From Desulfuromonadales bacterium (GTDB lineage: Bacteria; Desulfobacterota; Desulfuromonadia; Desulfuromonadales; Geopsychrobacteraceae): DNA of 64,000 bases. Position numbers and translations under genes: made by a program. Shown one piece after another: positions 13,236 to 64,000 of the stretch (positions are counted from its first letter, which is position 1; each line of letters begins with the position of its first letter). The stretch spans positions 1-64,000 of the forward strand of contig JAHYIY010000007.1 in the NCBI GenBank assembly GCA_019429255.1, given 5' to 3'. Below the pieces are notes generated by a model that saw only the letters and a program-made list of their open reading frames with translations, did no database searches and had not been told where the DNA came from.

Positions 13236-13391
13236 GCAACTATTCAGTTGCTATCCTTCGCGCAGGGCCGGGGATCCTATGGCAAGGGTGTTTGTCGCCA
13301 TGGACGGCGACAACAAGCGGTCATGGATGACCCAACGGGAAACAATCGCGTCCCTTGACATAGGATTCCCGACCCGGTGCTGAATAGATAC
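13236..13391 (+). mobile_element. MITE copy A, between hrcA and grpE
   Basis: This 156-bp non-coding element has terminal inverted repeats (GCAACTATTCAG at the left; the right end reads GTATCTATTCAGCACC on the other strand). It is flanked by an exact 8-bp direct repeat, GAATATAT (13228-13235 and 13392-13399). Internal arms GGGGATCCTATGGCAAGGG and CCCTTGACATAGGATTCCC pair with two mismatches, and the centre has hairpins TTGTCGCC/GGCGACAA and GGTCAT/ATGACC. It matches copies B, C and D over nearly its whole length. The left duplication begins three bases after the hrcA stop, and the right one lies just upstream of the grpE ribosome site. Confidence 0.92.
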
Positions 13392-29347: not shown

Positions 29348-29502
29348 GTAACTATTCACTGCTGTCCTTGCGCAGGGTCGGGGTTCCTGTGGCAAGGGTG
29401 TTTGTCGCCATGGATGGCGACCACAAGCGGTCATGGCTGACCCAACGGGAAACAATCGCGTCCCTTGACATAGGATCCGAGGAGCCGGTGCTGAACAGAT
29501 AC
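29348..29502 (+). mobile_element. MITE copy B
   Basis: A 155-bp element with GTAACTATTCACTGC at the left and a right end reading GTATCTGTTCAGCACCGG on the other strand. Flanking 8-mers GGCCTGAT (29340-29347) and CGCCTGAT (29503-29510) agree at seven positions, as a target duplication with one later change. It is nearly identical to copy C (in inverted orientation) and shares the central block with A. Its 3' module (GGATCCGAGGAGCCGG) differs from that of A and D. The left duplication spans the stop codon of the preceding fragment. Confidence 0.9.
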
Positions 29503-32638: not shown

Positions 32639-32793
32639 GTATTTGTTCAGCACCGGCTCTTCGGATCTTATGTCAAGGGACGCGATTGTTTCCCGTTGGG
32701 TCATCCCTGACCGCTTGTTGTCGCCGTCCATGGCGACAAACACCCTTGCCACAGGAACCCCGGCCCTGCGCAAGGACAGCAGTGAATAGTTAC
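32639..32793 (-). mobile_element. MITE copy C, upstream of the SAM riboswitch
   Basis: A 155-bp copy in inverted orientation. On the minus strand it begins GTAACTATTCACTGC. The flanking 8-mers AATTGCTG (32631-32638) and AATTGTTG (32794-32801) match at seven of eight positions. It is the closest relative of copy B, sharing the GGATCCGA-type 3' module. The left duplication starts at the last base of the cysK stop codon. Confidence 0.9.
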
Positions 32794-38065: not shown

Positions 38066-38167
38066 GCCACCAAGCCACCAAGAACTCCAAGAAAAACAGG
38101 GCAAGGCCTTTGTTGTTTTACCTAATTCTGGTTTTTTCTCTCTTGGTGCCCTTGGAGCCTTGGTGGC
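38066..38167. repeat. Imperfect inverted repeat between two minus-strand genes
   Basis: GCCACCAAG followed by two variants of CCAAG (38066 to about 38097) is matched in reverse complement by 38135-38167. The arms are about 32 bp with several mismatches. GCCACCAAG/CACCAAGA repeats of this type recur in many bacterial genomes as dispersed palindromes. It might act as a transcript-end structure for pncB, which reads toward it. Confidence 0.6.
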
Positions 38168-43000: not shown

Positions 43001-43318
43001 GTCACCGGGCACCTTTTGGGCATAGCTTTACCATATCCAGTCGTAATTATTCAGCTGCAGTCCTTCGCCCAGGGCCTTTGGATCCTGTGGAAAGGGTTTT
43101 TGTCGCCATGGACGGCGACAAAAAGCGGTCATGGAAAACGAAAAGCGTCCCTTGATATAGGATTCCCGACCCGGTGCTGAACAGCTACACTCAGTCTAGC
43201 ATAAGATGACTGAGGAGTGACCAGAGGAAGAAGGATAGAGCGACAGGAAATTTTTTTGCTGGTCTGCTATTCTTGTGAGTGTCACAGGATTTTTTCACTA
43301 TCTCCTGAAGAGGATACG
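43001..43318. other. 318-bp divergent intergenic region
   Basis: The stretch lies between DUF2905 (minus) and DUF748 (plus). It contains MITE copy D (43043-43188) and about 130 bp of leader for the plus-strand gene. I see no clear promoter pair. The frame continuing upstream of 43319 is open by chance and lacks a start with a ribosome site. Confidence 0.6.
43043..43188 (+). mobile_element. MITE copy D
   Basis: A 146-bp, more diverged copy beginning GTAATTATTCAGCTGC, with a right end reading GTAGCTGTTCAGCACCGG on the other strand. The segment that holds TGACCCAACGGG in the other copies is replaced by a shorter A-rich stretch. Flanks ATCCAGTC (43035-43042) and ACTCAGTC (43189-43196) agree at six of eight positions, consistent with an old duplication. 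The 3' module GGATTCCCGACCCGG is shared with copy A. Confidence 0.85.
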
Positions 43319-61689: not shown

Positions 61690-62480
61690 ACGAACACCGC
61701 TTCAGCCGGATGCAGCTTCTGGTCGGCAAGAAAAGCATAGATTCACTGACAGGGTCTTCGGTGGCCGTCTTCGGTATCGGTGGAGTAGGAAGTTATGCTG
61801 TGGAGGCGTTGGCGCGCGCCGGAGTCGGAAGCCTGACCCTGATCGATTTTGATGAGATCTGCGCCACCAATATCAATCGCCAGATTCATGCCCTGGATAC
61901 GACCATCGGTCGCTCCAAGGTCGAGGTGATGGCTGAGCGCTGTCACCAGATCAACCCCGCTTGTCGGGTGATCCCCAGGCAGGCATTTTATCAGGCTGAT
62001 ACTGCGCCGGAGCTGTTGCCGGCGGGCTACGATTATGTTCTCGACTGCATCGATCATATTACCGCCAAGCTTCATCTGATCGAAAACTGTGTAAAACAGC
62101 GGATTCCGGTCATCAGCTCCATGGGTGCGGCAAACAAGCTTGATCCGACCCAAATCAAAGTTGCCGATATCAGCAGCACGGAAAAATGCCGACTGGCGCG
62201 GATTATGCGCAAAGAGTTGCGGCGACGCGGGATCCATCGGGGGGTACAGGTGGTTTACTCGACGGAAGAATTTCGCCCTTTAAGTGATGAAGCCCATGTT
62301 TGTGCCGACAACTGCATCTGCCCCAATCGTGACGAACAGCGCTGGAGTTGCAGCGACCGCCGTGCGATTCTCGGCAGTTCGTCCTACATACCACCGATCT
62401 TCGGGCTGACCATGGCAGGTGTTGTGGTGCAACAATTGATAGGCGAGACCGGATTAACAGCCGCCGGCAGATTGCAATAA
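61686..62480 (+). CDS. tcdA: tRNA threonylcarbamoyladenosine dehydratase
   Basis: A 264-residue E1/ThiF-like protein with the nucleotide motif GIGGVGSYAVEALARAG and the adenylation-site segment INRQIHALDTTIGRSK. It converts t6A to its cyclic form (ct6A) at position 37 of ANN-decoding tRNAs. The late Cys pair (CADNCICP) may bind zinc or iron-sulfur as in some members. It overlaps tatD by four bases. Confidence 0.93.
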   Translation: MNEHRFSRMQLLVGKKSIDSLTGSSVAVFGIGGVGSYAVEALARAGVGSLTLIDFDEICATNINRQIHALDTTIGRSKVEVMAERCHQINPACRVIPRQAFYQADTAPELLPAGYDYVLDCIDHITAKLHLIENCVKQRIPVISSMGAANKLDPTQIKVADISSTEKCRLARIMRKELRRRGIHRGVQVVYSTEEFRPLSDEAHVCADNCICPNRDEQRWSCSDRRAILGSSSYIPPIFGLTMAGVVVQQLIGETGLTAAGRLQ

Positions 62481-62482
62481 AA

Positions 62483-63370
62483 ATGTCCGGCACTGCGCCC
62501 TTGTGGCAAATCTACATGAAGCTGGCGCTTGCCGCTGTCTTCTGGGGTGGAACCTTTATTTCCGGAAAATTGCTGGCGGCTGAAGTTGCTCCTTTCACTG
62601 CCGCTTTTCTGCGTTTTGCCCTGGCAACGCTGCTGTTGCTGATCTTGACCAGGAGATATTTCGGTCGTTTGCCCGGGATCAATGGTGACGATCTGGTCCC
62701 CTTGCTGTTATTGGGTTTAAGTGGAGTCTTTGCCTACAATGCCCTGTTCTTTAGCGGCTTGATGTGGATTGAGGCCAGCCGTGCGGCGGTGATTATCGCC
62801 AACAACCCGGTAATGATTGCCCTGGGTGCAGCACTTTTTTATGGTGAAAGCCTGACCCTGAAAAAATTCGTTGGCATAGGACTTTCCGTCATTGGAGCGG
62901 TCACGGTTGTCGTGCGTGGTGACTTAGGTCAGATCCTTAGCGGTGGGGTCGGCTGGGGGGAATTGATGATCTTCGGCTGTGTGCTCAGCTGGACAACATA
63001 TTCTCTGGTCGGACGGCGGGTGATGCGGCACTTTTCACCATTGGTAGCGGTTACCTATTCAGCAGCGATCGGGACCTTTCTGCTCTTCCCTTTTGCCTTG
63101 CTGGAAGGAATGTCGACGCGACTGTCCGGCATCAGTGTCGTTGCCTGGGGACATATAGGTTATCTGGCACTGTTCGGAACGGTGCTTGGTTTTGTCTGGT
63201 ATTATCAGGGGATCGTCCGGATTGGCTCGACCCGCGCCGGGCAGTTTATCAATATTGTGCCGTTGACCGCTGTATGCCTGTCGATCCTGTTGCTGGGTGA
63301 GCCATTAACCTGGTCACTGCTGGTTGGTCTGATGTTCGTCAGTGGCGGTTTATATCTGACCAATAAATAA
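62483..63370 (+). CDS. EamA/DMT-superfamily transporter
   Basis: A 295-residue protein with ten predicted helices in two EamA repeats (WGGTFISGKLLAAE and the second repeat beginning near GWGELMIFGCVLSWTTYSL in parts). Substrate is unknown. The ATG at 62483 starts 2 bp after the tcdA stop. Longer frames upstream overlap tcdA and are not conserved. It is convergent with the MFS gene at the window end. Confidence 0.88.
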   Translation: MSGTAPLWQIYMKLALAAVFWGGTFISGKLLAAEVAPFTAAFLRFALATLLLLILTRRYFGRLPGINGDDLVPLLLLGLSGVFAYNALFFSGLMWIEASRAAVIIANNPVMIALGAALFYGESLTLKKFVGIGLSVIGAVTVVVRGDLGQILSGGVGWGELMIFGCVLSWTTYSLVGRRVMRHFSPLVAVTYSAAIGTFLLFPFALLEGMSTRLSGISVVAWGHIGYLALFGTVLGFVWYYQGIVRIGSTRAGQFINIVPLTAVCLSILLLGEPLTWSLLVGLMFVSGGLYLTNK

Positions 63371-63410
63371 GATGGCAGCGGCGCAAAAACTCACCAATGA
63401 CTGTTTGCGA

Positions 63411-63447
63411 GTAACTACTCAGCCCCGATCTCGTGCTGAGCAGTTAC
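63411..63447. mobile_element. MITE copy E, minimal inverted-repeat element
   Basis: A 37-bp element: GTAACTACTCAGC, an 11-bp centre, then GCTGAGCAGTTAC. The arms match at 12 of 13 positions and correspond to the ends of copies A-D. It is flanked exactly by GTTTGCGA on both sides (63403-63410 and 63448-63455). It lies between convergent genes, 40 bp after the EamA stop, and could also form a terminator-like hairpin. Confidence 0.85.
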
Positions 63448-63471
63448 GTTTGCGAAAGTATCAAACAAGAT

Positions 63472-64000
63472 TCAGCCGCGGTTTCGGCCCAGATAAAACC
63501 AGGCTACCGTGATCAGCTGGAGGATCAGCATGAAAGCAAAAGCAGACTGATAACCTGTGGTTGCATAGCCACCGCCGGCGGTTTGCGGATAGAGTCCGAT
63601 GATGATCCCGACCAGCCACTGCGAAGCAAAGGCACCGGCAAACACTAACAGATTCAGGATGGAATTACACCGCCCCACCAGCCGGCGGGGAAAATACTGA
63701 GCCAGGATGGCGTAGGGGAGGATACCGGCGGTACCGAGAAGCCCGAAGCTGATCCAGAGCAGGGTCGGAACGCCTGGAGCGAGAATCAACAGGAGTTGGC
63801 TGGCCATGAACAGCCCCATCCCTGTTGCCGCGATCTGTTCCATGCCGATTCCCCGGCGGCTCAATCTTTCTGCCAGGATGCCGCTGCTGAAATAGCCGAC
63901 GATCATGGCCAGAGCCATCCACCAGAGCACCTGAGCCGTTGCGCCGCGCTCAAGTCCTGCCACATCTCGTAACCAGGGGCCGGCCCATAGTCCCTGTAAC
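63472..64000 (-). CDS. MFS transporter, C-terminal part (start outside window)
   Basis: The frame is open from the right edge at 64000 down to a stop at 63472, about 175 codons. It includes the LWAGPWLRDVAGLERG segment at the edge and about six helices (LWWMALAMIVGYFSSGIL, LLWISFGLLGTAGILPYAI in parts). This pattern suggests an MFS carrier whose N-terminal half lies to the right. The GLWAGPWL motif is often seen in siderophore- or nitrate-like and other MFS members. Substrate is unknown. Confidence 0.82.
   Translation of the reverse strand, partial: LQGLWAGPWLRDVAGLERGATAQVLWWMALAMIVGYFSSGILAERLSRRGIGMEQIAATGMGLFMASQLLLILAPGVPTLLWISFGLLGTAGILPYAILAQYFPRRLVGRCNSILNLLVFAGAFASQWLVGIIIGLYPQTAGGGYATTGYQSAFAFMLILQLITVAWFYLGRNRG

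What the first reader, a model, noticed from the sequence alone, without database searches (positions are those of the whole stretch)
63403..63455. A 37-bp element made almost only of the two inverted repeats, with perfect target duplication
GTTTGCGA - 37 bp - GTTTGCGA is exact. The arms match those of the longer MITEs, but nearly all of the internal sequence is missing. This implies that the transposase needs little more than about 13-16 bp at each end, or that an internal deletion occurred after insertion.
Basis: seen in the sequence. Interest (0 to 1): 0.65.

Follow-up and report, generated by a model that had tools for sequence, protein, structure and literature searches.

The report
37-bp IS66-type MITE, ends only
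The 37-bp sequence is a real, extremely short "jumping" DNA element, little more than the two end signals of an IS66-family (ISBst12-group) insertion sequence; relatives of similar size are scattered through many bacteria with the same 8-bp insertion scars, which suggests that a transposase can move DNA hardly longer than its own two recognition sites.

Summary
GTTTGCGA / 37 bp / GTTTGCGA is exact at 63403-63455, with 13-bp inverted ends matching at 12/13; no such structure arose in 40 shuffled windows at that stringency. It is a miniature inverted-repeat element of the IS66 family, ISBst12 group. The same ends with 8-bp duplications bound a complete 1.7-kb IS66 (PF03050) element elsewhere, and match published ISDge4. 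The 37-mer equals a resident 155-bp MITE cut at a 3-bp microhomology (2 mismatches). A second 37-mer with the same junction lies on another contig. None of five relatives keeping both flanking genes has any element at this locus. Short forms behave as mobile units elsewhere: six 42-bp copies differing by at most 1 bp at six sites with six different exact duplications in a family member; about 20 copies of 37-59 bp in a congener. A scan across bacteria found 31-61-bp versions, half with 8-bp duplications (about 1% expected). So little more than the ~13-bp ends seems to suffice. Whether the window copy arrived at 37 bp or shrank afterwards is unproven, though the former is likelier. Below 40 bp most palindromes lack duplications. 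No IS66 transposase was found in this genome. New variant of a known kind.

The parts
63403..63410 (+). left copy of the 8-bp target-site duplication GTTTGCGA
   Evidence: sequence; exact match to the right copy
63411..63423 (+). left terminal inverted repeat GTAACTACTCAGC
   Evidence: same end as autonomous IS66-family elements and ISDge4 (PMC12898284)
63424..63434 (.). 11-bp internal remnant CCCGATCTCGT; read on the minus strand it continues a 155-bp MITE end (CAGCACGAGATCGGGGCTG) up to the deletion junction
63435..63447 (-). right terminal inverted repeat GTAACTGCTCAGC (12/13 identical to the left one)
63448..63455 (+). right copy of the 8-bp target-site duplication GTTTGCGA
   Evidence: sequence
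13236..13391 (.). long (156-bp) MITE of the same end class, exact 8-bp duplication GAATATAT
29348..29502 (.). long MITE, 8-bp duplication with 1 mismatch
32639..32793 (.). long MITE, 8-bp duplication with 1 mismatch
43043..43188 (.). long MITE (146 bp), duplication decayed (2 mismatches)
62348..63370 (+). upstream flanking gene (EamA-like permease, product inferred from the translation; the listed start is the longest possible); the element lies 40 bp after its stop
63472..63999 (-). downstream convergent gene (MFS-like transporter, product inferred, runs past the window end)

Best explanation
A non-autonomous element of the IS66 family, ISBst12 group, reduced by internal deletion to its two ~13-bp end signals plus 11 bp. 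A resident ~155-bp MITE lost ~118 bp between two CTG trinucleotides (inferred from the junction). The 37-bp product kept both transposase sites and was inserted in trans by an ISBst12-type transposase between two convergent genes, giving the exact 8-bp duplication. That the insertion is transpositional is well supported. That the 37-bp form itself was the mobile unit is inferred from a second copy with the same junction and from other short forms that have clearly dispersed as units. The source of the transposase is unknown: none was found in this assembly.
For: Exact 8-bp duplication and 12/13 ends, not reached by chance. Joining the left 25-28 nt and right 9-12 nt of the C2 MITE reproduces the window 37-mer with 2 mismatches; a second MITE (C50) carries both junction halves. 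A second 37-mer at G000:C30:88122-88158, 4 differences, same junction. Five relatives with both flanking genes have no element here. L175 346-2051: 1706 bp, ends GTAACTACTCAGCG, exact duplication TTGCGATA, one IS66 transposase, in a genome that also has short elements. L236 1330-3052: same ends, 472-aa IS66 transposase, in the window's own family. ISDge4 (ISBst12 group) transposes with ends GTGACTACTCAGCA/GTAACTGCTCAGCA and an 8-bp repeat (PMC12898284). Mobility of short forms: six 42-mers differing by 0-1 bp at six sites with six different exact duplications in G022; 20 copies of 37-59 bp in G002, including a 37-mer with exact duplication AATTATCC. Across bacteria 58 of 115 elements of 31-61 bp have duplications with <=1 mismatch, against 0.9% for shuffled flanks.
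Against: No PF03050 transposase in the window's genome. The second 37-mer has no recognisable duplication and a mutated end. No base-exact empty site for the window copy. Of 20 elements <=39 bp in the cross-bacterial sample only 3 have duplications, against 55 of 95 longer ones (Fisher p=5e-4), so the shortest forms may move poorly, or many of them may be something else.
Confidence: 0.85

Rival explanations
1. A full-length (~155-bp) MITE inserted here with GTTTGCGA duplicated and later lost its interior by a microhomology-mediated deletion; the 37-bp form was never mobile.
For: The deletion junction has a 3-bp microhomology. A congener's 37-mer is a 20-bp deletion of a resident 57-mer at a 5-bp repeat, so such deletions happen. 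The second 37-mer in this genome has no duplication.
Against: Two unlinked loci share the same junction, which would need the same deletion twice. Short forms in relatives are dispersed with distinct exact duplications. No relative has a full-length copy at the locus.
Confidence: 0.3
2. A hairpin kept as a functional element, for example a bidirectional terminator between the two convergent genes; the direct repeats are incidental.
For: It lies between convergent genes and folds strongly (-20.8 kcal/mol, z -3.9).
Against: No terminator call at the element. The hairpin is not conserved at the locus in relatives. The ends match dispersed mobile elements and the exact 8-bp repeats are not chance. 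Termination as a secondary effect is not excluded.
Confidence: 0.05
3. The ends belong to another transposase family with 8-bp duplications rather than IS66.
For: No IS66 transposase is present in this genome, and several IS families make 8-bp duplications (general knowledge).
Against: Identical ends bound an IS66-transposase element with an exact 8-bp duplication (L175), near-identical ends do so in L177, and ISDge4 agrees.
Confidence: 0.05

Closest known systems
ISDge4 (IS66 family, ISBst12 group), Deinococcus geothermalis, PMC12898284
   Same: ends GTGACTACTCAGCA / GTAACTGCTCAGCA almost identical to the 37-mer's GTAACTACTCAGC / GTAACTGCTCAGC; 8-bp direct repeat on insertion
   Different: autonomous, encodes a 449-aa transposase; the 37-mer has no coding capacity
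MITEs derived from insertion sequences (e.g. MITEPsy1, 100 bp, shown to transpose, PMC3189936)
   Same: non-coding, terminal inverted repeats, target duplication, thought to be moved in trans by a parental IS
   Different: 100 bp against 37 bp; different family (MITEPsy1 is linked to ISPsy2, tentatively IS5, with 4-bp duplication)
Canonical IS66 elements (2.35 kb, ends GTAAGCG...)
   Same: GTAA ends, 8-bp duplication, PF03050 transposase (e.g. L184, L226, L230)
   Different: ends differ after GTAA and the elements are longer; the 37-mer's ends match the single-ORF ISBst12-type group
155-bp MITE at G000:C2:13981-14135 and the related copy at C50 (loci L259/L261/L267) of the same genome
   Same: left 28 and right 12 nt of the C2 copy reproduce the 37-mer with 2 mismatches
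   Different: contains ~118 bp more between the ends

Membership tests
MITE (non-autonomous IS derivative) | terminal inverted repeats | tested here: met
   12/13
MITE (non-autonomous IS derivative) | target-site duplication of the length typical for the parental IS | tested here: met
   exact 8 bp; chance excluded
MITE (non-autonomous IS derivative) | no coding capacity, small size | tested here: met
   37 bp
MITE (non-autonomous IS derivative) | several copies of the same form in the genome | tested here: inconclusive
   only two 37-mers in this genome, the second without duplication; other short forms are multi-copy in relatives
MITE (non-autonomous IS derivative) | autonomous partner in the same genome (usual, not strictly defining) | tested here: not met
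   no PF03050 match in the 61-contig assembly; partner types with the same ends occur in a family member and in other bacteria
IS66 family, ISBst12 group (ends) | ends GTAACTNNTCAGC-like and 8-bp duplication | tested here: met
   L175 and ISDge4 as yardsticks
IS66 family, ISBst12 group (ends) | the element is moved by an ISBst12-group transposase | not testable with these tools
   needs a transposition assay

The most novel reading that the evidence does not exclude
ISBst12-group IS66 transposases can recognise, synapse and insert elements as short as 31-37 bp, i.e. two ~13-bp ends separated by 5-11 bp. That leaves almost no DNA to loop out between the ends, so it would imply synapsis in trans, a replicated or single-stranded/hairpin intermediate, or an unusually compact end complex. 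Elements consisting of ends alone would then be a widespread, overlooked class of bacterial mobile DNA.
Probability: 0.5. Interest if true: 0.62.

Novelty: new variant of a known kind. Interest (0 to 1): 0.42.

Why it matters
Bacterial MITEs are generally described as elements of under 300 bp, and the first one shown to transpose is 100 bp (PMC3189936). Elements that are almost nothing but transposase sites set a lower bound on what a transposase needs, and give a ready natural series (31, 34, 36, 37, 42, 57, 155 bp, 1.7 kb) for testing how IS66-family ends are synapsed, a mechanism that PMC12898284 calls insufficiently characterised. They are also easily missed by annotation tools, and could be mistaken for terminators or REP-like hairpins.

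Tried and rejected
A base-exact empty site for the window copy was sought in 60 relatives: the genes are conserved but the intergenic DNA does not align. Insertions inside reading frames, which would give an empty site at protein level, were sought among duplication-flanked short elements: no convincing case. IMG/VR holds one such element, without duplication. No paper in the library prints these end sequences as a short element, and text searches for IS66 MITEs gave nothing matching. The terminator reading was considered and rejected.

Full report
OBSERVATION. At 63411-63447 the window reads GTAACTACTCAGC CCCGATCTCGT GCTGAGCAGTTAC, flanked on both sides by GTTTGCGA. A search for any 13-bp inverted pair with at most one mismatch, loop 3-60 bp, bounded by exact 8-bp direct repeats returns this site alone in 64 kb. 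Forty first-order Markov shuffles return none. The element lies between two convergent genes that end at 63370 and 63472.

RELATION TO LONGER MITES. The window has four longer elements with the same type of ends: 13236-13391 (exact duplication GAATATAT), 29348-29502, 32639-32793 and 43043-43188, with 0, 1, 1 and 2 mismatches between the flanking 8-mers. Genome-wide there are about 270 end-like matches per strand at up to 2 mismatches, against about 95 for the reversed control. Many of the long MITEs have perfect 8-bp duplications. Read on the minus strand, the 37-mer is GTAACTGCTCAGCACGAGATCGGGGCTGAGTAGTTAC. A 155-bp MITE on contig C2 begins GGAACTGTTCAGCACGAGATCGGGGCTGCC and ends GGGTACTGAGTAGTTAC. 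Fusing its left 25-28 and right 9-12 bases gives the window 37-mer with 2 mismatches, so the junction sits in a shared CTG. A MITE on C50 carries both halves too.

A SECOND COPY. G000:C30:88122-88158 is also 37 bp, differs at 4 positions and has the same junction. Its flanks show no duplication and one end has decayed to GTCAC. The three congeners have no element at that position. The simplest reading is that the junction formed once and the 37-bp form then moved. A repeated identical deletion is possible but less likely (inference).

THE LOCUS IN RELATIVES. Sixty genomes (the own genome and relatives) were searched with the locus. G001, G002, G003 (same genus), G005 and G011 (same family) keep both flanking genes in order and have a short intergenic space with no element of any size. 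So the element is private to this lineage among those examined. The intergenic bases do not align well enough for a base-exact empty site.

SHORT FORMS IN RELATIVES. In G022, a family member (which carries the same elements as record JAADGW, M_MetaBat.138), six 42-bp copies differing by 0-1 base lie at six sites with six different exact 8-bp duplications; two further 42-mers of other internal sequence also have exact duplications, and one 35-mer has 1 mismatch. In G002, a congener, 20 examined copies of 37-59 bp include many with exact duplications. One is a 37-mer flanked by AATTATCC that equals a resident 57-mer minus 20 bp between ATCCT repeats. G003 has five 56-58-bp copies. This is the pattern expected if short forms transpose as units.

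SHORT FORMS ACROSS BACTERIA. Of these, 58 have flanking 8-mers equal within one mismatch and 37 are exact; shuffled flank pairs give 0.9% and 0.4%. The shortest with exact duplications are 31 bp (L086), 34 bp (L132) and 36 bp (L145). In 395 genomes of the window's phylum 5 carry versions up to 44 bp, with no match to the reversed control pattern. A caution: at 39 bp or less only 3 of 20 have duplications, against 55 of 95 above (Fisher p = 5e-4). Many of the shortest are near-perfect palindromes without duplications. A few of these are sub-pairs of longer duplication-flanked elements with an extra inner end; the rest are unexplained.

WHICH TRANSPOSASE. L175 (from the genome that also holds short elements L051, L080, L082 and L143) contains a 1706-bp element with ends GTAACTACTCAGCG, exact duplication TTGCGATA and one transposase reading frame matching PF03050 (6e-42) and NF033517 (3.5e-83). 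L177 is similar (1554 bp, ends GTAACTGGTTAGCC, exact duplication). L236, in a genome of the window's own family, has ends GTAACTATTCAGT/C around a 472-aa IS66 transposase, with a 2-mismatch duplication. Canonical IS66 elements in the same sample are about 2.35 kb and begin GTAAGCG. The published ISDge4 of Deinococcus geothermalis, placed in the single-ORF ISBst12 group and seen to transpose, has ends GTGACTACTCAGCA and GTAACTGCTCAGCA and an 8-bp repeat (PMC12898284). The 37-mer's ends therefore fit the ISBst12 group. The window's assembly has no PF03050 match. The enzyme may have been lost, be missing from the assembly, or be present only in ancestors or other strains.

MECHANISM AND JUDGEMENT. 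Shown: a transposition-type scar, ISBst12-type ends, a sequence that equals an internal-deletion product, and multi-locus short forms with independent scars in relatives. Inferred: trans mobilisation by an ISBst12-group transposase, and that this copy was already 37 bp when it landed. Two ends 11 bp apart leave almost no DNA to loop, so synapsis in trans or a replicated or single-stranded intermediate would be plausible; nothing here tests that. As a kind it is a MITE; its near-total reduction to the ends is the new aspect.

Noticed in passing
L066, L147, L065, L074, L328, L083, L148, L142 (32-36 bp palindromes): Near-perfect palindromes with the same 13-bp ends and inner symmetric bases recur at different loci and in different species without any 8-bp duplication; they may be a different product of these ends or a separate hairpin family.
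   Followed up: partly
L083 5178-5254, L095 1672-1758, L139 2937-3063: Some duplication-less short palindromes are one end of a longer duplication-flanked element that carries an extra inner copy of the end sequence.
   Followed up: partly
G000:C30 near 88160-88360 (L151, right after the second 37-mer): A long MITE flanked by AAATTAGA on both sides sits upstream of a gene; G001 and G002 have a single GATTAGA at the same conserved GATAAATAAA-like stretch, which looks like an empty site for the long form.
   Followed up: partly
window genome, about 270 end-like matches per strand: The genome is loaded with ~145-156-bp MITEs of this class but has no detectable IS66 transposase.
   Followed up: yes
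L086 and L132: Two unrelated short elements in different gammaproteobacterial genomes have the same duplication AAAAATAT (on one strand), which may hint at an A+T-rich target preference.
   Followed up: no
window 38066-38167: 27-bp inverted repeat, 81% complementary with 48 bp between the arms, among the strongest short-range inverted repeats of the window and without the IS66-type ends.
   Followed up: no
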